Below, piece by piece: positions 43,260-63,133 of a stretch of DNA of 64,000 nucleotides (the stretch's first letter is position 1; each line of letters opens with the position of its first letter). Under the pieces are notes generated by a model. The model saw nothing but the letters and a program-made list of their open reading frames with translations. It was not told the DNA's origin and did not search any database. The DNA comes from Zygnema cylindricum (Eukaryota > Streptophyta > Zygnematophyceae > Zygnematales > Zygnemataceae), in assembly GCA_037447655.1 (NCBI GenBank), contig JBBHKE010001760.1, forward strand, positions 137,646 through 201,645. The letters are read 5' to 3'. Made by a program: the position numbers and the translations under genes.

Positions 43260-43356
43260 ATGGCTGCCACCACTATTACCACGACATTCTTGATCTTAGC
43301 GTGCCACGTGGCACTTTCACTGGGAGACTACGTTGGAACCATGCCGGAGCCAGACA
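43260..43356 (+). CDS. Exon 1: signal peptide
   Basis: ATG at 43260 opens MAATTITTTFLILACHVALS, a short polar start plus hydrophobic core, followed by LGDYVGTMPEPD. The donor ACA|GTAAGC gives phase 1. An upstream in-frame ATG at 43227 would add 11 residues before the hydrophobic core and is less likely. Confidence 0.65.
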
Positions 43357-46300
43357 GTAAGCCTTCCCCTCCTTCGACCTTCATTCCACACCCAGTTTTC
43401 GGTGTGCACTCCAGATTTTCACACGTGTGAGCGGTGTCTCCAATTCCCTCATCTGACGCGTCTGTCCGTACTTTCCGTACTTTCCGTACTATCCGTACGG
43501 CTGTTGTAGAGTCGACTCTGAAGGCGGTGCGGGCGGCCTTCAAGTACAAGGTGACGTTTCCGGCGATAAAGTGTTACGGGGGAGGCGACGTCTGGTCGGA
43601 TCCCTTGAAATGCGACGATTCCGGTCGCGTGTACTCCATGTCAGTGACTGTCGCTGCGTGCACTCTTTGCTGCGACAGTACCGCTCCTTCCCATCCACTC
43701 TCCCTTCTTTCCCCCTCCCTTTCCCCCTTTCTCCCTCTTCGTTCCTTTCGTCCCTAGGAGGGGAAGACGGAGGAGCGGAGGAACAGGGAGGAGGGGAGGA
43801 AGAGGGAGGAGGGGAGGAAGAGGGAGAGGGCGAGGGAGGGAGAGAGAGAGGGAGAGTGGGAGATAAAGAGAGAGACAGAAACATTTTGATGTCCAAAGAA
43901 AACTAAGCTAGTAAATAATTTGTTTTTTTTATCTTTTACCTTTCTTGACCAAAAGTACAGCTGGTGATCTTGAAGACAGTGGGTTTAAAGAAGAAGGTAC
44001 AATCATACCGCCTTAAAAATTTTACAAAGTTTTTTTTTTTTTTTTGGTCCTAATGTCTCATTTGGGTTTATTTAATTTTTGTTTTTTTGTTTATTTGTTT
44101 GTTTGTTGTGTTTTGTTTTGTTTTTTTGTTTGTTTTTTTTTTTTTTTTGATTTTGGTTTCCTTATGCCCAATTATTGAGTATGCTATTTTTAATGGTTTT
44201 TTAAAATATTCTATGCCCCATTTTAGGTTTTTTAAACCTTGAAAACTCTAAAAGACCCTAAATCACTCTAAAACCTTGAAACCTAGATTTTCTACTGATT
44301 GAAATGTGCGTTTTCTTTTTTTTTTCTTTCTAGAAATTATAACTAAGATTATTATTGTTAATTATTTTATTGTTGTTATTATTGTTGTTAATTATTTTAT
44401 TGTTGTTATTATTATTATTTTAGTATTATTATAATTATTATTGTTATTATATTATTAATGTTATTATTATTGTTGTTATTGTTACTTTTATTATTATTTA
44501 CATATTTATTTATTTATTTATTTTGCATTTTCTTTGCAGATGTGGGAGTTTCAAAGCCGGAGAGTTGGACATCGGAAGACGAAAAAACTCCCCGTAAGTC
44601 TTTTTTTTTATTGCTTTTGAGTAGTTTAACATCGCACGACAAAAAATCTCGCATTTTTTATTTTATTTTATTTTATTTGTTTATTCACATTGTTTTTTTT
44701 TTGTACTTGTGGACTGAATGTATGTGTTTTACAAAGACGATTTTGTTTCTGAAATTATAACATGTATTTGTTATCTTGTAATATATAATTATAAAATGTA
44801 ATATTTTCATGTAATATAAAATTATAAAATATATTATTATCATGTAATATATAATTATAAAATAATTTTTTATCATGTAACATATAATTATGAAATATAT
44901 TTTTATCATGTAATATATAATTATAAATGTATTATTATCCTTTACTATATAATTATAAAATGTATTATTATTATCATGTAATATATAATTATAAAATATA
45001 TTATTTATAATAGATTTCTTTATGGTTGGTTATGGTTATTAAATTGTGTATTTATAAATATAAATTTAGTATCACATAATAGTGCCTAAAAAATAATCTT
45101 AATAGTATAAGATATTCTGTAACAACAAATCAAAAATATAGAGGGGGAAGGAGAGGGAGAAGGAGAGGGAGAGGGAGAGGGAGAGGGAGAGGGACGGGGA
45201 NNNNNNNNNNAACGAAATATCCCCAGTAAGATAAAATTAATTAGACTTTTTGCTTTTTCATTTCTTGAATTTTTCGTAATAGGGTTTTTGCTCCTTTTTT
45301 TTTGGGGATTCTTATCACTTCCCTTTGATGTCAACGTTTGTTTTAGTTTGATGTACCCAAAAACACTGGTAGGAGGCCGGAAAGAAAGGTAGTTTTTTTT
45401 AAAGTTAAGGCAATTTCAATATAGAGATGTGATTGAGGAAGAAGGGGGCAAAGGGATTATCGTTTACATAGATATGGTGTGGAAGCATTAAATTTAACAT
45501 TGTCTGTTTTTCCTCCTATTTTTTTGCGGGTGTTTTTTTTAAATTAGTTTTGCGGAAATTTTTTTTGATGGAAAGAAAGGCCGGAGGATGGTCACAAAAA
45601 CCCATGTAGTTTGATTTTGTTTGCAACTGTAGTTTCCCTTCACTATTCTTAGGGGTTTTTTTTTCCTCGTTTTTGGGATAATGCTTTTTAAGTTCTTTAC
45701 TTTTTCGTTTTTCAGATTAATTAAAATAGAATGACCCCTATAAAGCAAGGGAGGGAAAGCAAAGGGGAGATGGGGAGATAGAATATAAACATCCATGCAT
45801 GAAAATTATTCATATATATTTGTAGATGTACATATAGAGAAGCGGCGAAATGGATATGTACCTTTTGTTTTAAAATTTGGCATTATTATAAGGAAGCATA
45901 TGCATTTATATAATTTGTGTTATCCATATTTGATTTTTTTTCATATTTTTAAGTGGTTTTAATTGGTTCCTTTGACTTCACACTACCGTATTTTTTAAAT
46001 GAACCATGAAAATATTGTTTTATAAGCTCTTATAAAAAAAAATGATATTTCTTTTTCAATATGAACCGGAATAAGTGTTACGATTCGCAAATTACAAATA
46101 GTAAAATGGTAGAGTATTTATGCAACTAGCAAAGCCACGCGTCAAAATGAAAAGGTATATGACAATGCTCAAATAGAAGCACCTGACGCTATAAACGGAA
46201 ATCAAGAAGAATCAAGCGGTATCAAAGCACTCCGGATTCGTCAGGGTAGTCACACTCAAAGGGGCAAATTAACACCGCCGGAGAAATCGCACCGAACGAT

Positions 46301-49300
46301 CACAAATCTACGTTTTTTTATGGACCACTTTTGTATTACTAATCGATGTCAGCGCAGCTTTTTGTACATAGTACGGTCACTTGACTGTGTATTAACTTTT
46401 AGTGTGTATAGGCGGCGAATCCTCTAATGGTAAATCTAGTGTTGGCCGTATTAGATTACCGTAAGTACGATACAGCGCTCCTATTGGGTAACTAGGTGGA
46501 AATTGAAGCCGTGAGTGTAAAGTAGGACTTAGATTTTTTCTTTTATAACTTTTGAGAAAGGGTTCACTTTTAAAAGAGGAAAGCGTTGCCAAGAGGGCAA
46601 CTTTGAAGGCCAGTTTCTAGGTGATGAATTAATCATTTTGTTCGATTATGCTTGTGTAAAGTGTGCTATAGCCTATTAAGTCATAAGGTTTGTAGCCAAG
46701 ATTCCATACTGTAGGACTAACTGTTGAAGGCCTAAGTAGTTTGAAAAGTGTCTCTCTCGAGTAGTATTCCGCGGTTTAGAGATGTCTCAAGAGTCAGAGT
46801 CATATAGAGTGGCAAAAGGGATCTCAAAACTAGAATAAATTGTAAAATAGAGTGAAGAAATGTAAGACAACTGGGTCAGGGGAGTGGCAATATGCAAACA
46901 AATACGATCTTTTATGGATATTAAGTGTGCAAAAATCAAGCCTGTCAGCTATAACAGCTTTATTCAAAAATTACGTTTATTATTATTCTTATGTGTGACG
47001 GTGGACAAAAGCCCGTGAGATTTATTCCTAAGAGTTTGTACCCAAATTTTATTTTCATGATTTGTAACCTTGTACCGCATACTAACTTGGATACACTTGG
47101 TGGGTGGGATGGTGGTCGGTGGGGTGGGAATGCTCGCTATCACAGAGGTCTATCTAACAACCAGTTGAGTGGAAACATTCCATCGTCTATCGGTCAATTA
47201 ACATCCCTCAAAGAATTGTAAGACACGTGGCACTATGGATCTGTTTTGCATCAAATGATACTTTAAATGGTTATGGTTTGTTGCGGAAAATATTTCACAG
47301 AATTTTAGGTTGTGGATCATCATTTTTTACTACTTGACAATTGGCACAAAAAATGTAAAGTTTATAAATGCATTTTGTTGTTTTATTTATTCCATTTTTT
47401 TATTTGGAAAACACAAATTCAAACTTTTAAACATTTGGAAATTATTGTTTTACAAATGTCTAATTAGCATCCTAGGTTGTAGTAATTATTATAATAAGAA
47501 CAATACAAATAATAATATTGTGATAAAAATAACAATACTAAAGAAAGAGAAAGAGAAAGAGAAAGGGAAAGGAAAATCAACAGAAAAAATAATAAAAAAA
47601 GGATAAGGAAATCGTGTTAGTAAGAATAAGATTAATATTAAAAATCAAATGATTTATAGTGACAATAACAATGATATTGATAAGAAATAAATAATAAATG
47701 GTAAAAAATAGTAAACTATAAAAACAACGAACTGTAAATAATATTTAAAATTGTAAATAAGAAAGACAAATAATAAATAACGTTGATAAAAATACTGATA
47801 ATCACGATGAATAATAACAAGTAATAATAAACTGAGTTCATTAATAGCAAATTACACTCATATAATCATTGTTTTTTTCTTTTACTCAATTAGTTAAGCT
47901 GGAAATTAGAGTGAGAAATAGACAAAGACAAAGGGGGGGAAGTGTGTTTGCAAGTTTGATCGTAGGCAAATATGTGTTATAAAAGAGAATCAACTCAAAA
48001 TAATGCTTATCATTTTTATTAAGATGTAGACACCTTTTCGATGTATCTTCTAAGACTTCACACATTTAATTTCTGGTTTATAACCTTGAAGCTTTTTCTG
48101 GTTTATAACCTTGAAGCTCATACTAAATTGGAAGCACTTGGCGGGGGGAGGGGGCGGTGTCCGATGTCACAGATATCTACATCAGAACTTGTTGAGTGGA
48201 AGTATTCCATCATCCATTGTTAACCTGACATCCCTCCAATACTTGTAAGACGCATCACACTATGGTTATGATAGATAGTGTACTCCAAAAAGTTATGGTT
48301 TGTGATGGGGGATGAAGTGATGAGTGCTGTCAAGAAGGGAGCCCAAATAACAACTTCATAGTAATAATAATGGCATAACCATGTGAAGCAAGGAAGGCTA
48401 AAGGTAGGAGGGTGAGAGATAGGATGTAAATATGTATATATCCATATGCATATGTATATATAGGGAAGAGATTAGGTGAACATGAGTATTTCGTTTAGTA
48501 ATATGACTTGATTATAATATATTTTTTTTGTCACGTTATTTTTCGAAGTTGTAAATTAGCTTTGTTGAATGCATGTTTTTATTATTTCCATCATTAGAAA
48601 AAGCAAGTAGCCGAATGTAAGAAATCTGTGGGGAGGGGGTGCGTGATGTGGTAGAGGGCGTGAAGGATTGAAACCAAATAAGATTTTGTGTGTATATTGT
48701 ATGTGCAAAGGTCATATTATTAATTATAATAAAAGATCAAGACAAATGTGCGTTCCTCATTTTGCGATAAACATGTTGCCTTTTAAATTTACTTACTAAA
48801 TATTCACACTCTTTTTTTTCTAACTTTCTAGCCCATACTAACTCGGAGGCTTTTCTCCCTCTCTCTCTCCTTCTACCTCTCCGTCTCCCTCTCCTTATCC
48901 CTTTCCGTCTCCGTCTCCCTCCCCCTCTCCTTCTTTCTTCCCATCCCCCTACCTCTCCTTCTCCCTTTTTTTAACCTCTCCCTCTCCCTCACCTTTTTCT
49001 TCTTCCTCTCCCTCTGCCTCTTTCTCTCCATCTCTCTCTCCCTCTCCCTCCACCTTTTCCCTCTCTCCCTCTCCCTCTCCCTCTGCCGCTCCCCCTCTCT
49101 TTCTCTCTCGCTCTCCTACGCACTGGGCTGGGGTTCGTGGGGATGCCTGGCATCATAGATGGCTAGCTAACAACCAATTGAGTGGAAGCATTCCATCATC
49201 CATTGGTCAACTGACATCTCTTCTATCCTTGTGAGACTCAAAATACTATGGTTATGTTACTTATCAAAAGTGTATTTTAGATGGTTATATTTTGTGATGG

Positions 49301-52300
49301 CGGAAAAGAGGAGGGGTTCGTAAGGGTTCATGGCAAAAACTCCAATAATAAATATCAATAACAACGCTAATGATATTTCTTTCATATGTCAAATTGTTAT
49401 AAATTAGTTTTGTTGAGTTCATGTTATGTATGTACATGATCTTTTTTAAACAAATCATTTAAATGAGGAAAGAGTGAAGAGGTGCAAATGGGGTTTCATG
49501 TGAGTAAAAGTGATTTGTGTGTGGATATTGTGTTTGCGAAGATCGAATCTAACAGGTACAACACAAAAAATCATATTTAACTTATGTTAATTATTTTTCC
49601 TAAATAAAAAAAGTGAATTTACAAAGAATTCATTCTTATTTTTTTGTTTATGGCCTTCGCCACACTAACTAGAGGGACGGTTTGGTTTTGGGGGTGGGGA
49701 TACCCACTTTATTTTATTTGTCTTTATTATTTGAAAGTAGGTACACTAGTTGAAAGTATTATGATTGCTTTTTTATTTTTTTGGGGGGGGGGTTCATTTT
49801 TAAAAAATGCAATCCAACTTTTTATCGTTTAAGCGATCACATATGATAATAATATAAAATAATAAAGATATTAATGTCCATGGAATGAATTAAAATAATC
49901 ATAAAATAATAACAATAAGAATAAAATGGTGTTAACAAAATAATATTAACGTTTATAAAACAAGTAAATAAACAATAACAGCAAATATGTCACATTAAAT
50001 GATAATAAATGATTATAAGTAATAATGTAAAATAATTAATAGCAAGAAATGATAAATGATAAATTATCTCAACAAAAAGTAACAAATAATATTGTCTATT
50101 ACATGATAATAAATGTTTATAATAGCTGACAACAATAACTAGCAATTAATATCAATAAATAACAACAATAAAATATATATAAAAAAATCATTGATGAATG
50201 GTAATAACAATGATATTATAATAATGATTGCAATCAACAATGAGAAAATTACAAACATTGACATCAAAAAATAAGATAAAGAAACATCGATAGCAAATAT
50301 TAATGAGAATGACAGATAATAATGAGAAAATTTTAAATAATGATAGGAATAAATAATGATGGCAAATAATAATATTAATAAACAAGGACAAATAATCAAT
50401 AAAAATAATTAGCAATAATAACTAATAATAGAAAGAAAAAAGATAAACAACAGGAATTAATACAAAATTTACAGAATAAATAATAACAACAATCATCACA
50501 ATAACTATAATAATAAATCACAAAATGTAACAAACAATATTAACAAATAATAAAAATAAAAAATATGGTGATCAATAGTATTAGTTAATGTTAAGAATTT
50601 AACAATGTATAATTATGTTAATTGATAGGTCCTCAAAAATGACCTTTTCACATGTAATGAGGAAAAACACAATAAAGCAAATTTATCTTTCTAATTTTTT
50701 ATCGTTAATGTTATCGGCTTTTCTTTTTGTTTCCGAAGTATTTTCCTTCTGTATAATTAAGCTTCTTTATTTTATTTTCGGCGTATATCTAAGAGAATCT
50801 ACTTGTTCATATTTAAGTGGCACGATAGAGGAAGAGGGAGGAGGGAGGGTTGTGATTGAAATCATTATGGTGCGGAAACCTAAAAAAAAAAAAAAAACAG
50901 TATATAACAGTTGGGTTATTTTCTTTTTTTTTTTTTAGCTAGGTTGTTTTCAGATGCTTATTTTCTTGTGGTGGGGGGTGGGGTGAGGGGGATGGTGACA
51001 AAAGCCATGTGGTGTGAAAACATTTTACTTTGCAATTTTCTTCTTTACGTTCTTTTGGTTTTTTTTGCAATAGATTTGCTGTTTTTTTTTTTTTTTTAAA
51101 CATTTCGTATAGAATATTTGATAGGGGAAAGAAGAAGACGGGGTCCAAAAGACACAAGACATAAGCATAGAAATAATTTAAATATTTATTTTTCGTATGC
51201 ATATATATATATATATATGTATGCGGGAGAGATCAGACAAACATGTTTCATTTTTTTTCAATTGATATGGTTATAACCATTTTCTTTTTGTATCCAAATT
51301 TGAAACATCTCCGTATTTGAAAAAACTAAAAAAAAAATGGTTGGGTTCATTTTATTACATTTTTGAAAATCAATCATATACATTGGAAAAATCAAGTCAT
51401 GTGATGTGAAAAACCTCGAGAGGGGAGAACACCGGAAAATCTATTCGATACTGCTTATAATTTTTAATAGTGGTGGTAGATTAAAAGCTTTTAGATGTAT
51501 GTGCTAAGAAATCGCACTACTTGTTTTTGGTTGTAACCCTGTATCTAATACTAACAAAAAGGTAGAGGGGGGGGAGGGTTGGTGGGGTGGGAATGCTCGG
51601 GTCACAGATGGATATCTAACAACCAGTTGAGTGGAACTATTCCATCTTCCATTGGTCAAATAGCATCCCTCCAATTACTGTAAGACACACAACACAATGC
51701 TTACGATAAGGATCAAAAATGTACTCTAAATGGTTATGTTGCGAAAACCCTAAAAAACCCCAAAAGATCCTGAAAAACCCTAAACCCTAAAAAACACTAA
51801 ATAGCCTAATAAACCATAAAAGATGTGTGAAGGTCAAAGATATTAGTTAAGATAGGAAATTAATTAAACATTCTTTATAAAATTTTGAGTGTGATGGAGG
51901 ATTAAAACACTTTCGATGTATTTAGTAAGAGTTCTCAATCAATTTGTTTTTGGTTTAAAACCTTGTATCTCATACCAACAAAGAGGCACTTGGCGGGGGA
52001 GGAGGGTGGAAAACCCCTAAAAAACCCTAGAAAACCCAAAAAAACCCTAAAAAATTCACTTTGTGGGGTGGGAATTCGGTCACAGATGGATATCTAACAA
52101 TAAATTGAGTGGAATCATTCCATCGTCCATCAGTCAATTGACATTCCTCCAATACTTGTAAGACACATGTTTGTATGGTTATGACGTGTCAAAATTGTAC
52201 TTCAAATGGTTATAGTTTGTTGTAGAAAATGTTTTACTGCATCGGAAAGTAAGAATCATAATTCTTTGTTGGTAGAGAGTTGGCACAATCATTTAGAAAA

Positions 52301-55300
52301 ATGTTTTTTTTTATAGTAATTTTATTATTTTTTTGTTTTTCATTTTGAAAATGTAAGCTCAGTTCAAAGAATTAGGACTTGTTTTTCAAATGTCAAAAAA
52401 AGATCATAGCTAATATTAATAATAACAATAAACTAAAATAAAATAATTATTTAAAATAATAATATCGATAACAAAAGAAAAAAATAACAGTAAAAGCAGT
52501 AAAAAAAAAACGATATAAATTAACAAAACATAAACAATCATAAACATAAAAGTAATGAGAAATAATTACTGAGTAATGATAATAAGTGTTATAATTAATC
52601 GAAAAAAAAATAATAGGAACTAATAAATAAGATATTAATCAAACACAAGTAATAATAAATAAATACAAATAATATAAAATACACTTGTCATTCAACAAAG
52701 ATTACATGAAATGTTGAGCTGGAAAAACGAAGGCATAGATATTATTAGGGACCTTTTAGTTGTGTTAACTTTGAATTGGAGGAGGCAGCATATTTCTACA
52801 TTTTGCTAAGGGTAAAGCATTAATTTTTTCGTTATGCTACGTTTCTGATGTGCATGAAGCTTTTATGATTGATGGGGAGCAATGCCATTTTTTACTATGC
52901 ATTTGTTGTTGCAGAGACATGTCATCTAACAAATTGTTGGGAATCATACCCCCAAGTTTCAGTGTGCTTCAAAATTTGCAAGAATTGTGAGTAAGCCACG
53001 GACATTCTAAGGTTCATGGACCTAAGGCATCGACGGATCGCCATTATTGATCCTCGTGCTAGTTATTCGCGATCTTTTAAAGCAATAAAGGATTTAAACA
53101 TCGCAAACTTTGGGTCATATCAATCACCTTTTGCTACTTCTGGTTTCTTGTATTGCCCATCTTAGCCTTAAGATTGTAGGCTACCTTAATAACATGGTTG
53201 GAGCATAAAGACATTCACATGACGGCTAACATTTTTCATCAAAACATAGAAGGTGAAGGTGGTGACGTCGACACCTGGAAAGCATTTTGAGCAAAGCAAT
53301 ATTAAATTTACCCATAAGGACATCTATATCCATGAAAGGAAACCTAGATTTAGAAACATGTTTTTTTACATGTCGGTCATGTAGCCAATGTTCACACTTA
53401 GCAAGAAGTCGACCGGTCCAACAGAAAAAGCCGATGAATAGCGCCTTTTCGAATAAACATCAGATTCCGGTACGGGAAAATTACAAATTTTGATTGCACG
53501 TGTGCATTTTGGAACCAGCTTTTCCAGGCTGTGAAAAGCCAGACTTTGTCGCAACTGGATTGTTACACCGTTTATCGCTAGTGGTGTTGATGTTTTTTGT
53601 GTGACTTAAAACATCTTTTCTTCGTACACGCTAGTCAGATTATGGATCTGACGGTTGCGATTGAAAGCCAAGATTCTCACCTTTCCATTGGCAGTCTCCA
53701 TGTGAAAATCGGACAAGTGTGTACGGAGAAAAGATGTTTTAAGTGACGAAAAAATTATTAACACTAATAGCAATACACGGTGTAGTTGCGCCATGCGGCG
53801 TAACAAGTGTCCAAGATAGTATGGCCGGTCAATTTTAGAGTTTCGCGGACGGCGAAGATCTTGGTCCTTGCACGTGCGGATTTTTTACAAGATGTTGGCG
53901 AAACAATGAGTTTTCTGGTGCGCCAACTGGATAGAAAACTATGGGTGACCACGTGGACCGGATTATTGAAATTTGGCAAATCATAAAGTAGACGAGGTTG
54001 GTCAAAGCAAACAAAAAAAAAAGATAAATAAATAAATAACTTATGGAGTTTTGAAGTTTCAAACATGAAAAAAAAATCAATTTTGGTCCGTTTTTCTGGT
54101 AAAGTTGATTTTCTGGCCTGTCTTGGCAAAGAGCAAACGCCACTTGATCACGAAGGTCCGGAAAAACTTAATCCGCATTTTGTTACTGCAAATTATTGTT
54201 TTGCCTGACACGTTAACTTTTTTGTACTACACCGTGTACCATTATTAGTGTTAATAATCTTTTCGCCACTTAAAACATCTTTTCTACGTACACACTTATC
54301 CGATTTTGAACTTGACACCGCCAATTGGAAGGTGAGAATCTTACCTTTCAATCGCAACAGAAAGATCCACAATCCAACATGTGTGTACGGAAAAAAGTTG
54401 TTTGAAGAGACGAACAAAACATTAACACTAATGGCGATACACACTGTACCTTTCGGCAAACCAATAAAAGCGTTTAATTTGCCAACGTCGTTAAAACTTC
54501 CCACGTGAGAACACCAAGATCCTGGCCGTCCTCAAAAATAAAAATGAAATGGCCACTAGATCTTAGAGCCAACATTACACGTGTGGCGTAACCTGCCCCA
54601 CCATAAAAGACAAAGATATGTTTTTACAACTTTGGATTGTATTATATGAAACACCCACGTGTATTTTATTTCTGGATTTATCCCATTACCGAAATTAAAA
54701 GCTATTGAAAAGGAACCTTTCTTTTCAATTTCGAGCCTACTTTTTCTTCTTTTCTGTCAGATCGGTTCATTTCTTCCTCTAGTGCTAATAGTGTGAAACA
54801 TTTTGTTCTGGATAAGATAGGAAAATTTGCAATGTTTGCATACTCACACTTTTAATTATGTTTGTTTACCAACATGGTTTCAATTTCCAATTGTCAGGTA
54901 ACGATATCCTTCGTCATGTATCTTGTGTTCATATGTGCACGAGAGACGTTGTTAAACAGAGAATCAATTCTAACAATTATATATTTTTTCCAGGAATTTA
55001 CAAAACAATTTATTGACAGGCCATGTCACTCTTCTTTTTCAAACTATAGGAAACTTAAATGTGCAAGTGAGCAACAACTTTTTGTCAGGAACGACCATCA
55101 TTGACAATGGCAAGCCAATATGTTTAAACAACGCGAACAACTGTTTTGTTTCCAATTCCAACGAATCAATATGTTTTGCTAAAAATCAAACTCGAAGATC
55201 TATTACAGAATGCTCGGGATTTTGCAATGCATCACAACCCGGGAGTGTCTGTGGAGGCCATGGCATATGTACCGCACTTGATGCGCCATGCATTTGTGAT

Positions 55301-58300
55301 GAGGGATACTTCACGATTGAGAAAGGCAATCCTTGCACTTTTGGTGAGCCCCAAGTGCCACGATTTATGGCATAGACATGTCTTATTCAAACATTAATAC
55401 CATCAAATAAGTGTAAATGACTGCCACAACCCATATAGACTTTAATAGAAGGTACTAGCAAGCTTTGCATTGCGAAGATGCTCAGCCATTATCGCTAAAT
55501 TTCAAAATTTATGTTTAGGGTACAAGCTATAATTGCTTTGTTTCAAGGTGAATCCTTTTGGGTTGGTCAGCATCAATAGCATCAATACCATTGACGCTTT
55601 TCCACTGTGTGCTTCATATTTCAGACGATCGCGGTTTTGGGTTGGAAATGTCTTCACAAGTAGCTTCAAAGAAAATGAACAAATACTTCCGTTACGCGAG
55701 CTCGGGATACTTAGTTCCCGATGAGGACAACAACCCATCATGGATGGTGGCGACCAACTGGAATTGGGTGAAACGGCAAGCTGTTACAGCCATAAGGGAC
55801 CAGCAAAGATGTAGTACGTGCACACCCTACCATTTTACTTGAGAATTCTTATGAAAAAATTATAAAGTGTCTCTTCACCATTAGAGTTCGAAATTGACTG
55901 ATTCGACCGGAAAGCCATTGAATTCGGCTTGGATCCAAACTGATAGCGCTTTTTCTAATAGCTTTGATTTCTGTACGGGGGAAATACAAAAAAAAATCAG
56001 CATGTGTGTTTTGGAATCGGTAACACGGCAAAAAACAAATTTCCGTTGTAAGCGTTTGCTAGTTACGGGGAGCGGCAAAACATTGACTCTAAGATCGTAT
56101 GGCCTTCCAATTTTACATGGGTCTCCACATGTGGGAAATTGCATACAAAAACGCTTAAAAACGATTCGTTCTTATTCGTTCACCAATCAATATTATGGAA
56201 ATTGAAGGTTCGCGTTATGAACTAGAAAGAAAAAAGAGGGAGAGGAAAAAAAAAAGAGAGAAAAAGGAAAATAGGATTAACTTTTTTGGACTTTCATGAC
56301 CAGATGAGACCTTATTTTTGCCACATCCGCCAAACAACAAATCGGCAAAAACTAATGCGCGAAAAATGGTTTTTTTAATTGTTTGAAACTTTCATGTCCT
56401 ATAACTCTTGTTAAATTATGTTTTTCTGTCTTTTTTTTTTTTTTTTTTTTTTTTGGCGTTGTGTCACATTGTTCTTCTACAATTCAGATATTTTCGAGGT
56501 GTTTTTTTTTTTTTTTGTTCACGTTCCAAAATGTGCATTTGTCATCTGTCACTTTGAAAGGCTATAACTTCACCGCTTTTTGCAGGATAAAATCTGATTT
56601 TTTCTTTTCACAAGTACTTAAGTGGTTTTCTGCCATGTCACAAAAATTAAGGTTTTTTTTCGTGAATACTGACCAAGATATTCAAGGTGCAAACTGGACT
56701 GATTTGCCTAGTGAACTGAAAATTTCAGTTCATTCACTTCCAACACTACACCGTGTATCGCTATTAGCGTTAGTATTTTTTCCGCCGATTAAAACATCTT
56801 TTCTTTGTACACACTTGTCCGATTTTCAATTTGAGACCGTCAATGGAAGCTGAGAATCTTACCTTTCAATTGCAACCGTCAGATCAACAATCCGACAAGT
56901 GTGTACGGAAAAAATACGTTTTAAGTGGCGAAAAAAACATTAACACTAATAGCGATATGCAGTGTAGTGTTAAACCTGTTCATTGCTTTACTTGAGAATT
57001 GTTCATGAAGAGACGAGTAATTCTTTTAGCATTTGAAGCAGTGAAACTGAAATGGAACCAAAATTATCAGCAAATCATCAACAACATAACGAGCAGTATC
57101 CATTTTCAAACACCGCAGATGACAGCTTTAGGCCGGTTGCATTCATTTTTCGACTTATTTCAACGGTTCCCTGTATCCTTTTCCTCTACTGATTTCACCG
57201 TTACATCTATGATCCTGATCTACTTATTTAAATGGTTGTGTCTTAGCTTCTATATCTTCTTTGACCAAAAGTTTGTAAAATTTTATTTTGCTCTATTGTT
57301 CCAGACACATGCTGGATTTCTGCATCCGTTTCAGCGATCGAAAGTGCCCTCTACATCGCCGGAGCCGGAAACTCGCCTGTTCCCACCATTGCGGAAGGCC
57401 AATTTTTGAACTGTTCTAGCTTGAAGCTTAATTGTTCTGTTGGGGGCTGGCCTTCTCAAGCCCTTGACTATGCAGCCACTAACACTCTCATTTTGGCCTC
57501 TCAGTACCGTCCAGGCATGTGTGGAGGACGACAAGTAAGTTGCACTTCACATGGCTACCGTATTTAAAGGCAAAATCAAAAGACAAACTGAACATGGTTA
57601 AATGCTTGTGATGAACTTTCTCGATCCTTGTTTTTAAGCACGTAGATCTCGGTCTTTTCCGAAAATAAAATAGTTTTGTTTTTGACTGGTTGTATGTGCA
57701 GGTTGGTAGCAATTTGACCATAACATATTTTGAGAGAATCTGGATGAACGGCTGGCTAGGCTTGCTTTTAGCTCTACAACAACAGCCGTCGATTGTGAGC
57801 ATAGAAGCAAGTGGAAGCAGTTTTTTGAATTATGATCCCAATATGGTAAGTAATTTGATTAAACAGTAATAATGTCTGGCTCTATGGTTAAAACCATGGG
57901 CCTTTTGGGTCACCTTCCCAAAAGATGCATGTGACGTTATGCAAAAGCTTACACGTCAAAAAATATTCTGGACAGAGATCAAGGAAACACCGTTGGATAA
58001 GCATTTAGAGTCGAAAATGAAAGGTCATACTTAGACAAGAGACCCTTTAAGCCACCTATGTATATATTTTGTAAGCTATTTTACAAATTTTACATGATTT
58101 TTTATGTTAATTTTTATTTTTTAACTTTGCCAGGACTAAAAGAAAATGTAAGTGGGTTTTGCAGGGAGTGTTTGATGACGAGGATTGTTTCGCAAATGGA
58201 GTGGATCATGTCGTAGTTGTCGTTGGATATGACTTGACTGCTACTCCGCCCTATTGGCTCATCCGCAATTCTTGGGGCACAAAATGGGGAGACAATGGAT

Positions 58301-61300
58301 ATATGCGTATGAAAATCACAGGAGGATCAGGAATTTGCGGAATAAACACCTTGCCTGCCCTCATACCTATAGTGAATGCATCCGGTAATGTACATCATTT
58401 ACTGTTGCTCACTAAAGCCAGATGTCACAAAAACATGTATTTATCACTTAAGCAAAACACATGTGTCTTTTTGTGTGAGATTTGATGAATAAACCTTTGC
58501 GATATGCAAGCAAACAACTATTAATCATGCAAACTACTTTTCAGCACTAGAACGACGCATAGACCTTGTTTCCTTTTTACTTTTTGCTCGTTATTGAAAT
58601 TGACCAACTCATAACTCGAGGATTTGTTTTGAAGAGCCTATAGAATCGGTATTGATTGTTAAAAAATTTCCTTCTGTGACATAGAGTACGCTTGGTTCCT
58701 TTTTGAAATAAGTTGGCTAAAAGTTTTATCAGCTCATAAAATTGGAAAGAAATGTCAACCAAAAAGTACCTATACTCATAGTATCATACAAATAGGAAAA
58801 TTGCCATATCCACACACCTTAACTCAACTTGCAATTTCTTACCGTGGGTGTTTTTTATCTTACTTTAGCGGATCCTTGCCGTGTCAAAAATTATGCGACG
58901 AACCAACTACAAGTGACGAATGGCCCGGGTGTCATGAATCCGTGTGGCAATGGCGTGTGTACCCCATTAGGCAAAACCAACACTTGCCAATGCAGCAAAA
59001 ACTTTGTTCCTGTCAAGAACACGGACGGCACCCAAACTTGTACACCAGGTCCACATGGAAAACTTTTAAAATCATGGAAACTTTATGAAATGCATCACAA
59101 TAACCATCTTTCTACGCAAGCCAAATAAAGTATACAACAGATCATGTACTATAGATCAACGGATGTAAATATATCTCCCTTTTTTTTTTTGCATTGTAAA
59201 TAACTTGTGCACATCGATTTTACCCATATCGCTGTTTTTTTTTTGTATTTATGTTTTTTCTTTGCTTCGGCTTGTAATATACTTGCAGTACTTTGTCCAA
59301 CTAGACAGATACTAATGCATAGATACTAATACGAATGAACGCTTGGCAATATGACACTGCAGGAAATCCTTGCAAATTCTATTCAAAAAATCCATGTGGT
59401 CTCGGCACCTGTGTGAATTCTGTAGTGAATCCGGGCTCATATCTTTGTATTTGCCCCATGGGCTATTCGGCTTATGAGTCTGAAAGCCCTCTTACATGTG
59501 TACCGAGTAAGTAATGAGATGTATAGCAACTCATGTCCCTCGTATTTGAAATAAGTAGGAAAAATAAGCTGGAAGTTGAAAAACATTTTTTTTTGTTCTA
59601 CAATGCCCATTGTTTTTAGTGCAAGGAACTTGGCAGATTGTTGTCCACTCCCTTAAATTTTTTGTTAACACTATTTTATGATTTTCGGTCATCAAAAGTC
59701 ACAACTAACTTAGTGTTATTAACTTTAATAACAATGGGCGGTGTAGCCAACCCATCATGGTCATGTATCACCGTAAATATTACAGCAGTCTTAGTTTTAG
59801 TTTTAGATTTTTTTTTATTTTTTTTTCGATTTATCTCGTGTGAATCTCCTCTTTGGCATTGTGGTGTCTCAAGAAGCCTAATTGCTCGTCTCATCCGATG
59901 CATTATTGCCCACTGTCTTGGATTACAGGTAATATTCTTGGAGGACCAAGTTACTACATTGTACCAGAAAATAGCACCGTGACATGTCGTGATATTCGGA
60001 ATGCTTACGGGATAGTTGAAGCTAACTTTACGAAACAAAATCCGGTATTTTTTTCCTCTTTTAAGTATATGCGTAAATCTTTTTCTGTGGTCTTTCATGT
60101 CCAAACTTGAAAGCTTACGGTTTTGTGGACAATATATGCTTCCTGTCTTACATTTCTCATGGAGAACACGTTACGCCGCTTCCTTTTCTACAACCTCCCG
60201 TCAAGAAACAGTTACGGATATATCAAGTATTCCTCAAACCGTAAAATTTGCCATAATAGTACCAAAAACATAGTCGCCAGAAAGAGTCACAGTTACACCC
60301 AATCGGTCAGATATAACCACATATTGCCAGAAAAAGGCGACGTTACTTCAGATCTAATCACTACACCGTGTATCGCTATTAGTGTTAATATTTTTTTCTT
60401 CTCTTAAAACATCTTTTCTCCGTACACACATGTCGGATTGTGGATCTGGCGGTTGCGATTGAAAGGTAAAATTCTCAGCTTACGATTGACTGTCTTAAAT
60501 TGAAAATTGGACAAGAGTGTACGGAGAAAAGATGTTTTCAGGGGCGAAAAAGTTATTAACGCTAATAGCGATGCACGGTGTACCTCACGGTTTGTTTTTT
60601 AGTGTTAACCACCTAACAACCCACATTGCCTATTGAGCATGGCAGAGTTTAAAGTGCGGTTTGCCACTGCCGGCACAAACAAGGGTGGACGTAACGGCAT
60701 ATCGCAACTGTTCATTAATCTATTCCACAAATGAGGTCAGTGATTAAAAAAAAATTATTAGAAATCGGAAGCATATTGGAGGGCTGCCAAGAAAACCACA
60801 AATGCATTTGAAATTGCTTAGAGGACATGGGTGATGCTTGATACACCCGCTAGTCATCTCTTTTGTTTCCGTTTTCAAAATGTTTTCTGAGGGTTATGGT
60901 CAAGACCACTTATTCCATCTTGGATTAGCTTCTCCTTTATTTTACAGGGTGACAGTTGCAAATCGATTCAATCTATGTTCAATTTGGCAAAAAACCTCTC
61001 TGGTTTAGGATCGCCTAATCCGGACCTCAACTGCTCCAGTCTTCAATCATACCAACAGGTGCAAGAAATCCAATAGGGCATTCAATCCACCATTCTGTTC
61101 TTTTCCCTTCCCTCCTCTCGCGACCTCATTTCCCTATACCATCCCACTATTTGCACATCCTCCCCTTCTCCCTTTCTCCTTCTCTCACACTCTCTCTTCC
61201 CCTCACCTCTTCAACAGTTTTCTCATTATTGGACCGTCCCCCGTCCACCCCACCTTTCTCAACTTCCCTTCACCTCCCTTTTTCTTGCGAGTATGAACCT

Positions 61301-63133
61301 TTTATTTTCAGCTGAAATTGATGTAGATTCAGTGTTAAAATGCTCGTAAAAACTGTTTAAAAAACTTATTTTTTCGTTATATCACAACAACCTGCGTTAT
61401 TTGTTTTGTGGTTTTGTTTTATCACTCAAAAGTGAAAACAAAAACAGAATTTATTCCGACTGTCTGGATTTTCGAGCTCTACAACTTTCTTTATACCTCA
61501 CAATTTCCGGTTTGATTCATTTTTTTTCAAGCTATTATTTTCTATGTTTATTACGTGCCAAAATTCGAAATTTTCCTCAAACTCATTTTCGCGCTAATTT
61601 TCTCAATGTTCAACCCTTCGACGGGCATTTAAAAAGTAATAACTTTGTTAATCTTTTTGGGAAAATTCTGGCATTCGGTAAAAGGGTAATTCTATGTCCT
61701 ATGTCAACAAGTCATGAAAGTTCGAATTTCCTCGGAGAAACCAGTTTTTACATATGCCTTGCAAAATGCACCGACGGAAAATAAGCAAAAATACAAATTG
61801 CCAAAGGAAAAAAAAAAAAAATGCCAAAAAAAAAAAAAAAAAAAATGAAATTGAAATGCTCTGATGAGGTCCTTATCCATTGCTACAACTCCAGATGGTT
61901 GACATTATATACCAAAGGCCCACCTCTTCTGATGATGTGAATACCTTTGGATTTGCTCAACTTATGCAGTCATAACTCCATAGAACATACCCATATAGCC
62001 ATCATAGCACCATAGTACATTCACAATTCATCATATCATAATGAAACTTAAACTTTCTTGGGACACTGGTTTGGATTCTCCTATAATCTTTTGCTCTCTT
62101 CAGGTGTGCATCAAGACAGGTCCCCCTCCATATCTCCCGCCATGTGTTTTTTTGTACGCGATTCAGCAGAATGACACGTGCAACTCGATTATTGCCACAA
62201 AGATGAACGGCAATGCGTCGAAATTCTACACCCTGAACCCTGGAATCCGTTGTAGTCTTATTGTGCTTTCAAGAAACTCTCTCATTGGTCCAAACGCGGA
62301 GGTACCTCTCCCTCCCCCTCCCCCTCCCCCTCCCCCTCCCCTTAAGTGCTCCATTATTGCTCATGATACATCCTACCTATGAGGTTATATGGGCAAACCC
62401 CTTTGTCCTGGCTGTGTTGAACTTGTATTCTAAAACCTATTAAAAAAAAATAATGTTATAATATGTAGTTCTGTAAAAGAAACAATAGTACGGAATGCCA
62501 ATCATGCACAGGCTTCCATGCAATGCTTATGACAACATTTGATGCGAAGCACAATAGTACGGTGCAATGTATATGACGATATTTAGTGCGAACACAAATA
62601 GTACGGTATGCCGCTTTCCATGCAGTCTTATGACGATATTTAGTGCGAACACAAATAGTACGGTATGCCACTTTCCATGCAATTCTATGACGATATTTAG
62701 TGCGAACACAAATAGTACGGTATGCCACTTTCCATGCAATTCTATGACGATATTTAGTGCGAACACAATAGTACCGTATGCCGATTTCCACGCAATATTT
62801 ATGACAATATTTAGTGCGACCCCATAGTGCTGTATACATTCCGTGCAATTTTTACGGCGTTATGGGACCGCGTTGTTTTTGGTGGTTCGCATGCAGGTGT
62901 GTTTGGAAGCCGGGGATTTGGGAAGCGGCGCATCATTTTGCTCAGGAAAGGACCGTACGGTTTTTCCATTCCCTAAGGAGGCCAATTGCAAAAGTTTACA
63001 AAAATATTACACAAAAGCTCTGACATTCAAAAAGGCAATGGGGTTTGCATGCACAAATAATGTTCTTAGAACCATCAAAGTTAAAAATTATAAGATTTGT
63101 GTGGCTAAGGCAAAAGTACCTAAGGGGTTTTAA
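43260..63133 (+). CDS. Secreted LRR - EGF - papain protease - EGF - LysM mosaic protein (22 exons, modelled)
   Basis: Assembled from 22 exons with GT/AG borders and compatible phases (3000 nt including stop, 999 residues). Order: signal peptide (about 1-22), LRR N-cap (about 70-102), LRRs (about 121-300), EGF-like (about 345-380), papain domain (about 425-640), EGF-like (643-700 and 703-749), four LysM-like modules (about 755-995). Papain-type residues are all seen: oxyanion Gln440, nucleophile Cys446 in NTCW, His583 in VDHVVVVVGY and Asn603 in RNSWG. No I29-type propeptide is visible between the EGF and protease parts. No transmembrane segment or kinase domain is seen, so the product should be secreted. 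Inference: LysM modules bind N-acetylglucosamine polymers, LRR/EGF bind ligands, and the protease cuts a substrate. The weakest parts are exons 1-3 and possible missed exons between 44594 and 47145. Confidence 0.8.
43432..43639 (+). CDS. Exon 2: LRR N-terminal cap
   Basis: Contains STLKAVRAAFKYK and WSDPLKCDDSGRVYSM, the usual end of plant LRR N-caps (Trp...Cys...SGRV). The acceptor (TGTGAG|CGG) is chosen because it skips the stop at 43428 and keeps frame. The donor AT|GTCAGT leaves phase 2, matching all downstream LRR exons. The intron before it would be only 75 nt. Confidence 0.6.
43684..43880. repeat. Pyrimidine tract followed by purine tract (mirror/hairpin prone)
   Basis: 43684-43756 is CT-rich (CTCCCT and TTCCCCC runs) and 43757-43880 is GA-rich (GAGGGAGGAGGGGAGGAAGA-type units). 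They could pair as a long imperfect hairpin or form triplex DNA inside intron 2. Confidence 0.7.
44335..44470. repeat. ATT/GTT trinucleotide-rich microsatellite in intron 2
   Basis: A run of TTATTATTG and TTGTTATTA units ends about 70 nt before the exon 3 acceptor. Confidence 0.8.
44540..44593 (+). CDS. Exon 3 (54 nt, tentative)
   Basis: Bounded by TTTTCTTTGCAG| and |GTAAGT, both strong. The 54-nt length keeps phase 2. The translation in the phase-compatible frame (CGSFKAGELDIG...) is not a clear LRR, so this exon is supported by splice signals and frame more than by domain similarity. Confidence 0.45.
44773..45012. repeat. AT-rich tandem repeat, ~35-40 bp units
   Basis: TATCATGTAATATATAATTA plus TAAAAT(G/A)TATTA recurs about seven times within intron 3. 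Confidence 0.85.
45140..45200. repeat. GGGAGA simple repeat next to the assembly gap
   Basis: A GGGAGA/GGAGAA array runs directly into the N run at 45201-45210, which probably marks an unresolved continuation. Confidence 0.9.
45201..45210. other. Assembly gap (10 N)
   Basis: Ten N bases inside the large intron before the first recognised LRR exon. The true gap size is unknown, and LRR exons could be missing here. Confidence 1.
47146..47217 (+). CDS. LRR exon a (72 nt)
   Basis: One 24-residue plant LRR, GLSNNQLSGNIPSSIGQLTS plus LKEL, bounded by ATCACAG| and TT|GTAAGA, phase 2 on both sides. Flanking intron sequence matches that of the next four LRR exons. Confidence 0.9.
48173..48244 (+). 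CDS. LRR exon b (72 nt)
   Basis: Reads YLHQNLLSGSIPSSIVNLTS plus LQYL in the phase-2 frame, with ATGTCACAG| and TT|GTAAGA borders. The other two frames have stops, supporting this phase. Confidence 0.9.
48850..49125. repeat. CTCCCT polypyrimidine array upstream of LRR exon c
   Basis: About 270 nt of CTCCCT, CTCTCC and CCTTCT units lie inside the intron and separate the conserved cassette start (CATACTAACTCGGAGGC) from exon c. The array appears to have expanded inside the cassette. Confidence 0.9.
49159..49230 (+). CDS. LRR exon c (72 nt)
   Basis: Reads WLANNQLSGSIPSSIGQLTS plus LLSL. The acceptor is CATCATAG| and the donor TT|GTGAGA, a variant of the GTAAGA used by its neighbours. Confidence 0.9.
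49850..50620. repeat. AAT/ATAA-rich low-complexity intron DNA
   Basis: Nearly pure A/T trinucleotide-type sequence (AATAATAA, ATAACAAT). Similar tracts are at 47500-47870 and 52430-52680. No exon is visible. Confidence 0.8.
51608..51679 (+). CDS. LRR exon d (72 nt)
   Basis: Reads WISNNQLSGTIPSSIGQIAS plus LQLL. Borders are GGGTCACAG| and CT|GTAAGA. Phase 2. Confidence 0.9.
51740..51800. repeat. Telomere-like CCCTAAA tract in intron
   Basis: Contains AAACCCTAAAAAACCCC and AAACCCTAAACCCTAAAAAA, variants of the plant telomere unit CCCTAAA. A second tract lies at 52012-52058. Confidence 0.6.
52012..52058. repeat. Telomere-like CCCTAAAA tract upstream of LRR exon e
   Basis: AACCCCTAAAAAACCCTAG and AAAAAACCCTAAAAAATTC interrupt the conserved G-rich cassette just before the acceptor of exon e. 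Confidence 0.6.
52086..52157 (+). CDS. LRR exon e (72 nt)
   Basis: Reads WISNNKLSGIIPSSISQLTF plus LQYL. Borders are GGTCACAG| and TT|GTAAGA. Phase 2. It is the most similar neighbour of exon d, sharing the ATGGATATCTAACAA start. Confidence 0.9.
52915..52986 (+). CDS. LRR exon f (72 nt)
   Basis: Reads DMSSNKLLGIIPPSFSVLQN plus LQEL, with TTGTTGCAG| and TT|GTGAGT borders. Its intron flanks do not match the a-e cassettes, so it is an older repeat. Confidence 0.9.
53566..53782. mobile_element. MITE copy 1 (217 bp, TA-flanked)
   Basis: Inverted ends CACCGTGTATCGCTATTAG-type with AACATCTTTTCT and CGTACAC further in; TA on both sides (53564-53565 and 53783-53784). The left end has two changes (CACCGTTTATCGCTAGTGG). 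It lies in the intron between LRR exons f and g. Confidence 0.85.
54230..54446. mobile_element. MITE copy 2 (217 bp, TA-flanked)
   Basis: The left end is CACCGTGTACCATTATTAG and the right end, inverted, is CAGTGTGTATCGCCATTAG, flanked by TA. The internal inverted segment TTAAAACATCTTTTCTACGT is shared with the other copies. It lies in the same intron as copy 1. Confidence 0.85.
54994..55343 (+). CDS. Exon g: last LRRs and first EGF-like module (350 nt)
   Basis: The acceptor TTTTTTCCAG| and donor G|GTGAGC change phase from 2 to 1. It encodes NLQNNLLTGH, LNVQVSNNFLSGT (LRR ends), a Cys-containing cap (KPICLNNANNC), two candidate N-glycosylation sites and the EGF-like SVCGGHGICTALDAPCICDE with regular Cys spacing. 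Confidence 0.9.
55625..55813 (+). CDS. Exon P1: start of the papain domain
   Basis: Encodes a short lead-in (DDRGFGLEMSSQVASKKMNK...) and WNWVKRQAVTAIRDQQRC, the equivalent of DWR..GAVTPVKDQGxC. It provides Gln440 (papain Gln19) and Cys443 (papain Cys22). The donor splits the Asn codon before the nucleophile (A|GTACGT, phase 1). Confidence 0.9.
56749..56964. mobile_element. MITE copy 3 (216 bp, TA-flanked)
   Basis: Best preserved left end CACCGTGTATCGCTATTAGC; the right end inverted is CACTGCATATCGCTATTAG. TA on both sides, within a longer inverted context AACACTA/TAGTGTT. It lies in the intron between exons P1 and P2. Confidence 0.85.
57305..57534 (+). CDS. Exon P2: papain nucleophile and core (230 nt)
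   Basis: After TTGTTCCAG|, the exon completes Asn444 and encodes TCWISASVSAIESALYI: the nucleophile Cys446 with Trp447, corresponding to CWAFSAVAAIE. It continues with EGQFLNCSSLKLNCSVGGWP, the equivalent of SEQELVDC...GCxGG, and ends CGGRQ|GTAAGT in phase 0. Confidence 0.92.
57702..57845 (+). CDS. Exon P3: papain central part (144 nt)
   Basis: Encodes NGWLGLLLALQQQPSIVSIE and ASGSSFLNYDPNM, matching the ...MLAVAQQPVSVAIEASGxxFQFY region of papain-family enzymes. The acceptor is TATGTGCAG| and the donor |GTAAGT, phase 0 on both sides. Confidence 0.92.
58165..58384 (+). CDS. Exon P4: papain His/Asn catalytic part (220 nt)
   Basis: Starts GVFDDEDCFANGVDHVVVVV with catalytic His583, then YWLIRNSWGTKWGDNGYMRM with Asn603 and the NSWGxxWGxxGY signature, and ends SGICGINTLPALIPIVNAS. 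The spacing from Cys446 to His583 is 137 and to Asn603 157, close to papain (134 and 150). Confidence 0.95.
58869..59048 (+). CDS. Exon: second EGF-like module (180 nt)
   Basis: DPCRVKNYA, then NPCGNGVCTPLGKTNTCQCS and TQTCTP: six Cys in EGF-like spacing without an obvious calcium-binding motif. The donor G|GTCCAC is weak but keeps phase 1. Confidence 0.85.
59363..59506 (+). CDS. Exon: third EGF-like module (144 nt)
   Basis: NPCKFYSKNPCGLGTCVNSV followed by NPGSYLCICPMGYSAYESES is a full EGF-like unit with the GSYxCxCPxGY ending. It is bounded by CACTGCAG| and A|GTAAGT. Confidence 0.9.
59929..60044 (+). CDS. Exon: LysM-1, first part (116 nt)
   Basis: SYYIVPENSTVTCRDIRNAY and GIVEANFTKQNP fit the LysM pattern Y.V..GDTC..IA..YG...-NP. 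It joins in phase 0 to NPSLKCGLPLPAQTRVDV in the next exon. Confidence 0.85.
60364..60580. mobile_element. MITE copy 4 (217 bp, TA-flanked)
   Basis: The left end is CACCGTGTATCGCTATTAGT and the inverted right end CACCGTGCATCGCTATTAGC, flanked by TA. It lies in the intron between the two LysM-1 exons. Confidence 0.85.
60646..60735 (+). CDS. Exon: LysM-1 end and LysM-2 start (90 nt)
   Basis: In the phase-compatible frame: SLKCGLPLPAQTRVDVTAYR, NCSLIYSTNE. CGLPLPAxTxV is the usual LysM end, and the following Cys-Leu-IYSTNEGDSC spans the junction into the next LysM. The acceptor ATGGCAG| lacks a strong pyrimidine tract. Confidence 0.8.
60948..61058 (+). CDS. Exon: LysM-2 (111 nt)
   Basis: GDSCKSIQSMFNLAKNLSGL and NPDLNCSSLQSYQQ are the GDTC..I...F......NP.LNC core of LysM. 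Borders are TTTTACAG| and |GTGCAA. Confidence 0.85.
62104..62301 (+). CDS. Exon: LysM-3 (198 nt)
   Basis: VCIKTGPPPYLPPCVFLYAI, QQNDTCNSIIATKMNG and FYTLNPGIRCSLIVLSRNSL form a complete LysM-like unit with an N-terminal VCxxxG spacer. The donor G|GTACCT runs straight into a CCCTCC repeat. Confidence 0.88.
62302..62342. repeat. CTCCCC simple repeat at a donor site
   Basis: GTACCTCTCCCTCCCCCTCC and further CCCTCC units start right at the splice donor after LysM-3. Confidence 0.9.
62529..62855. repeat. 57-bp tandem repeat in the last intron
   Basis: Units begin TATGACGATATTTAGTGCGA at 62572, 62629, 62686, 62743 and 62800 (exact 57-bp spacing), with a shorter diverged unit at 62529. Because 57 is divisible by three, reading frames stay open across the array on both strands, but they have no start context or domain and are not genes. 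Confidence 0.9.
62897..63133 (+). CDS. Last exon: LysM-4-like end and stop
   Basis: VCLEAGDLGSGASFCSGKDR, EANCKSLQKYYTKALTFKKA and TIKVKNYKICVAKAKVPKGF then TAA at 63131-63133. It follows the VCxxxG-spacer pattern and has a diverged NCKSLQKYY core, so it is a degenerate LysM. The acceptor is GCATGCAG|. A possible AATAAA signal lies at 63419-63424. Confidence 0.85.
   Translation: MCLEAGDLGSGASFCSGKDRTVFPFPKEANCKSLQKYYTKALTFKKAMGFACTNNVLRTIKVKNYKICVAKAKVPKGF

What the first reader, a model, noticed from the sequence alone, without database searches (positions are those of the whole stretch)
43260..63133. Undescribed domain architecture: secreted LRR - EGF - papain protease - EGF - EGF - LysM protein
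All parts are readable from the sequence. The exons splice with GT/AG borders and consistent phases to a single 999-residue frame. LRRs and LysM modules are the two main extracellular recognition folds of plant immunity and symbiosis receptors, and papain-like enzymes are typical secreted plant proteases. I know of no family that joins all three with EGF modules in one secreted chain. A one-protein glycan sensor, ligand binder and protease could act in defence, microbe perception or cell-wall remodelling. The biological role is inference.
Basis: partly seen in the sequence, partly recalled or inferred. Interest (0 to 1): 0.95.

Follow-up and report, generated by a model that had tools for sequence, protein, structure and literature searches.

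The report
Secreted LRR–papain–LysM protease of algae
A genome that looks like that of a green alga related to land plants carries a gene, one of many alike, for a secreted protein that joins a recognition module (leucine-rich repeats), a papain-like protein-cutting enzyme and sugar-binding LysM modules in one chain, a combination I did not find described and that may let the cell aim a protease at microbes or at its own wall.

Summary
Two complete single-transcript proteins (EukProt, species not shown) have the same order (38-39% identical). Seven of ten fetched paralogue loci repeat it. A near-copy (C1470) keeps 16 exons without stop or indel over 735 codons (dN/dS 0.21). Family size is large but not counted: 150 of 150 scored C1 exon places pass the cut-off, ordinary papains included. 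39 of 43 database hits are Closterium; one Closterium clade also carries a legume-lectin domain. LRRs are almost all 72-nt phase-2 exon cassettes whose number seems to differ between close copies; changes concentrate on the concave face, without proof of positive selection. C1A+LysM fusions were already in print; the LRR-EGF-C1-EGF-EGF-LysM order was in none of the papers found. Best mechanism (inferred): a secreted, glycan-anchored, LRR-targeted protease, probably for defence; wall or mating roles are not excluded. Organism unnamed; Zygnema-like by assembly size only.

The parts
43260..43356 (+). Exon 1: start codon and signal peptide (MAATTITTTFLILACHVALSLG)
   Evidence: same exon in paralogues g6 (C39) and g9 (C1991); highest hydropathy in the protein lies here
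43510..43639 (+). Exon 2: LRR N-terminal cap (..FPAIKCYGGGDVWSDPLKCDDSGRVYS)
   Evidence: counterpart in g6 and g9
47146..47217 (+). LRR exon 1 (72 nt, phase 2)
   Evidence: near-copy g8
48173..48244 (+). LRR exon 2 (72 nt, phase 2)
49159..49230 (+). LRR exon 3 (72 nt, phase 2)
51608..51679 (+). LRR exon 4 (72 nt, phase 2)
52086..52157 (+). LRR exon 5 (72 nt, phase 2)
52915..52986 (+). LRR exon 6 (72 nt, phase 2)
54994..55343 (+). Last LRR, Cys-rich linker and EGF1
   Evidence: tblastn match in 8 of 10 paralogue loci
55625..55813 (+). Linker FRYASSGYL and start of papain domain (oxyanion Gln396)
57305..57534 (+). Papain exon with catalytic Cys402 (TCW)
57702..57845 (+). Papain exon, GWLGLLLALQQQP motif
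58165..58384 (+). Papain exon with His539 and Asn559
   Evidence: (PF00112 E 3.9e-16 here)
58869..59048 (+). EGF2 exon
59363..59506 (+). EGF3 exon
   Evidence: Pfam EGF 6.7e-4
59929..60044 (+). LysM region exon a
60646..60735 (+). LysM region exon found by paralogue comparison (SLKCGLPLPAQTRVDVTAYRNCSLIYSTNE)
   Evidence: conserved in near-copy g8
60948..61058 (+). LysM region exon b
62104..62301 (+). LysM region exon c (best Pfam LysM match)
62897..63133 (+). Last exon: final LysM-like unit and stop codon

Best explanation
The locus is an intact member of a large multigene family of secreted, enzyme-armed recognition proteins. Shown here: a signal-peptide-like start and no other strong hydrophobic segment; a short plant-type LRR solenoid; a papain-type C1 domain with all four catalytic-site residues and no Pfam I29 propeptide; EGF modules on both sides; a C-terminal stretch of about four LysM-type units. 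Inferred: the chain is exported to the wall or mucilage. The LysM units (with a legume lectin added in one Closterium clade) hold it on N-acetylglucosamine or other glycans. The LRR concave face, which differs from copy to copy by substitutions and by gain and loss of 72-nt exon cassettes, picks a protein ligand. The papain domain then cuts proteins at that site, with neighbouring modules replacing the usual propeptide in controlling activity. The most likely purpose is defence against chitinous or bacterial microbes.
For: One-frame 20-exon model with consistent phases. Same order in two complete single transcripts (P0001, P0002) and in 7 of 10 fetched paralogue loci. No stop, indel or lost splice site over 735 codons against g8, dN 0.0235, dS 0.114. 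LysM region profile hits chitinase-A LysM chains in the PDB (4.6e-10, 5.6e-8) and Extracellular protein 6 (3e-6). AlphaFold model of homologue P0002: LRR superhelix like plant receptor ectodomains (best E 7.8e-20), papain fold (TM 0.89 by target length on bromelain), four beta-alpha-alpha-beta units at the end. Amino-acid changes between close copies are enriched at LRR positions 1,3,4,6,22,23: N:S 10:3 versus 5:12 elsewhere (window-g8, Fisher p 0.025) and 27:8 versus 18:16 (g4-g6, p 0.045), rounded counts. Large family (exon places). Desmids are attacked by chytrids (PMC9896892, abstract read).
Against: No expression, localisation, ligand or activity data for this gene. dN/dS on the concave face is 0.57 and 0.73, below 1, so positive selection is not shown; variable concave positions are normal in LRRs (recalled). 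The position set was fixed after the entropy table was seen, and the p values are uncorrected. The LysM units of this copy are weak (19.9 bits, under cut-off) and their ligand is unknown. 6 of 39 homologues with a residue there have Ser for the catalytic Cys, so proteolysis is not always the point. A large LRR family also fits mating or wall roles.
Confidence: 0.45

Rival explanations
1. Same protein, other purpose: a protease anchored in the alga's own wall or mucilage that remodels matrix proteins during growth or sexual conjugation, with the LRR recognising self proteins or the partner.
For: Secreted architecture with glycan-binding and protease parts; family present in Closterium, a conjugating alga (conjugation recalled); a large diverse LRR set also suits self/non-self or species recognition.
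Against: LysM profile resembles chitin-type LysM; no tie to mating or wall genes seen; nothing here tests expression.
Confidence: 0.25
2. Recognition protein or decoy in which the papain fold is a scaffold or inhibitor trap and catalysis is not essential.
For: Catalytic Cys is Ser in 6 of 39 homologues while His is kept in 40 of 40 and Asn in 39 of 40 (40 of the 43 hits aligned).
Against: The window copy keeps Gln, Cys, His and Asn; 33 of 39 homologues keep the Cys.
Confidence: 0.12
3. The window copy is a decaying duplicate: intact parts of a real family but no longer expressed.
For: Weak LysM score of this copy; transposon-rich surroundings and four MITE-like insertions in its introns.
Against: No stop, indel or splice loss in 16 exons shared with g8; dN/dS 0.21.
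Confidence: 0.08
4. Artefact: neighbouring LRR, protease and LysM genes wrongly joined.
For: Long introns and no transcript for this locus in hand.
Against: Same order in two single transcripts and in paralogues matched exon by exon; consistent phases throughout.
Confidence: 0.02

Closest known systems
C1A peptidase + LysM proteins of non-vascular Archaeplastida (PMC6362431, section 12 part 1 of 2 read)
   Same: Papain-type protease with LysM modules in one chain; the paper says C1A-lectin combinations were not retained in vascular plants
   Different: The part read mentions no LRR in these proteins and does not itemise the lineages; here an LRR solenoid and three EGFs are added and the family is expanded
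Closterium C1 proteins, unnamed or hypothetical (39 of 43 hits; 26-43% identity over the matched part)
   Same: P0011, P0019 and P0034 have LRR, C1 and LysM over cut-off in the same order; P0007 and P0010 have LRR, Lectin_legB, C1 and LysM over cut-off
   Different: Many carry Lectin_legB, ahead of the protease in 6 of 6 scanned that have it, which the window gene lacks; others show no LRR or no LysM; none is described in a paper I found
Plant LRR receptor proteins (LRR-RLP/LRR-RLK ectodomains; FLS2, MIK2, PSKR)
   Same: Plant-type 24-residue LRRs with N-cap; best PDB matches. 72-nt LRR exons also occur in some plant LRR kinases (recalled)
   Different: No transmembrane segment or kinase; fused to a protease and LysM
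Papain-like plant proteases (bromelain, actinidin, ficin)
   Same: C1A fold and catalytic residues
   Different: No Pfam I29 propeptide match at E<=1; protease sits mid-chain between EGF modules
Chitin-binding LysM proteins (chitinase A, Ecp6)
   Same: LysM profile match
   Different: No chitinase or fungal-effector context

Membership tests
Peptidase family C1A (papain) | Peptidase_C1 domain over Pfam cut-off | tested here: met
   129.3 bits, E 2.9e-37
Peptidase family C1A (papain) | Catalytic Cys-His-Asn and oxyanion Gln | tested here: met
   C402, H539, N559, Q396 read from the model and alignment
Peptidase family C1A (papain) | I29 inhibitor propeptide, usual for plant C1A zymogens (recalled) | tested here: not met
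   No I29 in the Pfam list at E<=1
Peptidase family C1A (papain) | Protease activity | not testable with these tools
   Needs purified protein
LysM domain proteins | LysM over Pfam cut-off in the window protein | tested here: inconclusive
   19.9 bits against 20.9, E 7.4e-4; none at E<=1 in the 925-aa version
LysM domain proteins | LysM over cut-off in close relatives of the same order | tested here: met
   Paralogue g4 34.0 bits (hand-joined piece); P0001 36.7, P0002 36.2 bits; profile hits PDB LysM
LysM domain proteins | Binding to GlcNAc glycans | not testable with these tools
   Needs binding assay
Plant LRR-RLP/RLK | Plant-type LRRs with N-cap | tested here: met
   LRR_1 5.2e-21 with six stretches; PDB matches. 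N-cap by eye only in the window copy: LRRNT_2 is over cut-off in P0002, not listed for the window copy
Plant LRR-RLP/RLK | Transmembrane segment (and kinase for RLK) | tested here: not met
   Hydropathy peaks at the N-terminus; the only other window among the top 12 is 1.33 from residue 580, the end of the papain domain; no kinase in Pfam
EGF modules | EGF over Pfam cut-off | tested here: inconclusive
   20.3 bits against 21.5; over cut-off in P0001, 22.0 bits; Cys positions conserved
C1A-LysM proteins | C1A and LysM in one chain | tested here: met
   At family level; in the window copy alone LysM is under cut-off

The most novel reading that the evidence does not exclude
A soluble, enzyme-carrying counterpart of plant LRR receptors: a large algal repertoire in which 72-nt phase-2 LRR exon cassettes are duplicated, lost and possibly alternatively spliced, giving many targeting heads on one glycan-anchored protease body. 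Close copies already seem to differ in cassette number (6 in the window gene, 10 readings in the near-copy, whose first exons were not found), and any cassette can be skipped without shifting the frame.
Probability: 0.2. Interest if true: 0.88.

Novelty: new variant of a known kind. Interest (0 to 1): 0.66.

Why it matters
[quoted passage not shown] PMC11096116, abstract start). Little is known about phytoplankton defence against chytrids (PMC9896892, abstract). A large family that physically joins the LRR and LysM recognition folds to a protease is a concrete, testable candidate for an extracellular defence or self-recognition system, and shows that these folds were combined outside the receptor-kinase design.

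Tried and rejected
Exon near 44540: left out, not conserved. First 19-exon model lacked one LysM exon; corrected. A first model with wrong splice offsets gave stops and was discarded. Alleles instead of paralogues for g8: synonymous divergence 0.114 and 84-90% identity over most of the long intron-spanning blocks argue for a paralogue, but a divergent haplotype is not formally excluded. E1/E2 of g8: not found within 10 kb upstream; that stretch holds four further LRR exon readings. Positive selection on the LRR face: not shown. Naming the organism through rbcL (PF00016): not completed. PMC11096116 (passages by find): LysM and EGF occur 0 times in the main text and the Peptidase passages shown name other families (S15, S8, M1, S53); its Lectin_legB 'in 26 combination architectures' may include relatives, but the supplement could not be read. 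PMC10834447 (passages by find): protease occurs once, peptidase never. My second notebook entry says 8 of 10 paralogue loci have the full order; the recount is 7 of 10.

Full report
1. Gene model. Reading the plus strand, I built a GT/AG model first with 19 exons and then with 20 after paralogues revealed a missed LysM exon at 60646-60735. It starts at 43260, stops at 63133, and has 955 residues in one frame with 15 N-glycosylation sequons and 46 Cys. The only strong hydrophobic segment is the N-terminus, so the product is predicted to be secreted and soluble. The mature chain is about 101 kDa, pI 8.5, if cleaved after residue 22 (cleavage site assumed).

2. Domains. Pfam on the 925-aa version gave Peptidase_C1 (2.9e-37) and LRR_1 (5.2e-21) over cut-off, EGF just under it, and no LysM. 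With the extra exon the C-terminal 249 residues score LysM 19.9 bits against a 20.9 cut-off, and an approximate paralogue piece 34.0 bits. A six-row profile of this region finds chitinase-A LysM chains (4.6e-10, 5.6e-8) and Ecp6 (3e-6) in the PDB. The AlphaFold model of homologue P0002 (40-row alignment, mean pLDDT 73.3, pTM 0.53, so relative domain placement is not reliable) shows LRR-type repeats, a papain-like domain and four beta-alpha-alpha-beta units in the LysM part (units read by eye). Its best PDB matches are plant LRR receptor ectodomains and plant papains; no LysM entry is among the 50 rows shown.

3. The chain is real, not a join of neighbours. One search of residues 265-925 returned 43 proteins: 39 Closterium, two EukProt transcripts, one each from 'lgn' and 'jgi'. 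P0001 and P0002 are complete ORFs of single assembled transcripts (species not shown) with LRR, C1, EGF and LysM in the same order (EGF in P0002 is under cut-off). They align with the window protein through EGF1, protease, EGF2, EGF3 and the LysM region. In G000, the window's assembly, I fetched ten loci around C1 places, chosen's list mainly near its top, plus strand only. LRR, EGF1, C1, EGF2, EGF3 and at least one LysM exon were found in order in 7 of 10 (g1, g3, g4, g5, g6, g7, g8; the LRR cassettes of g5 and g7 come, and g3 matched two of the four C1 exons at this threshold). g2 showed no LysM exon, g9 has signal and cap exons but no LRR or EGF1, and g10 only a distant C1 exon and one EGF. 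Exons 1 and 2 were found in 2 of 10 (g6, g9); for others the fetched stretch may not reach them. L004-L008 match exon by exon, breaking at about the same residues; L001-L003 match only at the C1 end, without EGF (L004, L006 and L008 are the same genes as g2, g3 and g4).

4. Functional constraint. The near-copy g8 (C1470) shares 16 exons from LRR1 to LysMb: 735 codons, 701 identical residues, no stop, no indel, AG/GT kept at every border, dN 0.0235, dS 0.114. The last two exons were not found in the stretch of about 1 kb before its contig ends. The exon with the last LRR and EGF1 has dS only 0.013, which suggests a recent conversion event (inferred). g8 shows ten 72-nt LRR exon readings against 6 in the window gene; the four extra lie upstream and are not proven to belong to the same transcript.

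5. Family size and history. PF00112 in G000 gave 303 candidates, of which 150 were scored and all 150 passed the cut-off. This counts exon places and includes ordinary papains, so it is not a gene count. PF01476 gave 29 places, 13 of them within 4 kb downstream, on the same strand, of one of the 150 C1 places (my count). A tree of the C1-EGF-EGF core has 46 rows: the window, g1-g9 and 36 of the 43 database hits. P0023, P0032, P0035, P0037, P0041 and P0042 fell out by the length filter, P0043 by choice, g10 as too short. The ten sequences of this genome form one clade (100/99). P0001 and P0002 are next to it (94/85, not starred). A Closterium clade of 24 rows (100/100) holds all 21 tree rows with Lectin_legB; none of the 12 other database rows has it; the six length-dropped rows also carry it. 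LRRs occur on both sides of that split, so the LRR-protease-LysM order probably predates it. Some rows sit on long branches and their place is unsure.

6. LRR cassettes. With a pattern that allows 66-78 nt, 47 of 48 distinct LRR exon readings in the ten loci and the window are 72 nt in phase 2; one in g1 is 69 nt, and five further rows are alternative ends of the same exons. Many share an intron end (TGTCACAG) and a GTAAG donor. In 41 cassettes (g8 left out), the most variable positions are 22, 1, 4, 23, 3 and 19, with 6 next; Asn5 is fixed by the search pattern, and Gly9 did not vary although Arg and Ser were allowed. Positions 1, 3, 4, 6, 22 and 23 are the concave, solvent-exposed side (recalled). 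Between close copies, amino-acid changes are enriched there, but dN/dS stays under 1, so this is a tendency, not proven positive selection. The set was fixed after the entropy table; counts were rounded and p values are uncorrected.

7. Catalysis. The window copy keeps Gln396, Cys402, His539 and Asn559. Across alignment A1 (40 of the 43 hits), Cys is kept in 33 of 39 rows with a residue and is Ser in 6; His in 40 of 40; Asn in 39 of 40; Gln in 35 of 38. No I29 propeptide is seen.

8. Literature. PMC6362431 (section 12 part 1 of 2; [quoted passage not shown] it reports EGF with GNA and ricin-B lectins. PMC11096116 (passages) reports Lectin_legB in 26 combination architectures in Zygnema and an assembly of 359.8 Mb in 3,587 scaffolds for Z. 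cf. cylindricum. G000 is 352.8 Mb in 2,689 contigs. That is the only basis for calling it Zygnema-like. PMC11289646 and PMC10834447 (passages) show no such fusion in the passages seen. The held library lacks most subscription papers.

9. Mechanism. I commit to a secreted, glycan-anchored, LRR-targeted protease, most likely defensive. The parts are shown; export, anchoring, targeting and purpose are inferred. Chytrid parasitism of desmids and the protective role of mucilage (PMC9896892, abstract) make defence plausible but do not test it.

Noticed in passing
53564-53784, 54228-54448, 56745-56966, 60362-60582: Four copies of a roughly 220-bp MITE-like element with long terminal inverted repeats in the introns; the copies at 54228 and 56745 are missing at the matching places of near-copy g8, so they inserted, or were lost, after the two copies split.
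   Followed up: partly
62563-62819: Tandem array of a 57-bp unit, 4.5 copies, 92% match, in the intron before the last exon.
   Followed up: no
7687-34806: Copia-like retroelement open frames on both strands (integrase and reverse-transcriptase motifs recognised by eye, recalled; no family search run), printed. I noticed no other gene among the frames of 130 aa or more there, but did not search for spliced ones.
   Followed up: no
54994-55343 against L023 (g8): Last-LRR/EGF1 exon has 3 mismatches in 350 nt (dS 0.013) while LRR1-6 have dS 0.17 and the C1-to-LysMb part 0.12: looks like gene conversion.
   Followed up: no
L025-L026 (C1991): Paralogue with signal and LRR-cap exons followed by protease, EGFs and LysM but no LRR or EGF1 exon found.
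   Followed up: no
Closterium proteins P0003, P0005, P0013, P0018, P0021, P0035: Catalytic Cys replaced by Ser: likely inactive or altered proteases within the same family.
   Followed up: no
P0039 (664 aa, source 'lgn'): C1-EGF-LysM protein without an LRR match and with a weak ricin-type lectin match at its start: possible relative of an ancestral core, on a long branch.
   Followed up: no
L030 (C1470:400646-406645), about 191 and 1386: Two LRR exon readings with identical translation 1.2 kb apart (DLSNNQLSGSIPLSFTNFTSLQE) upstream of the shared LRRs: looks like a recent cassette duplication.
   Followed up: no
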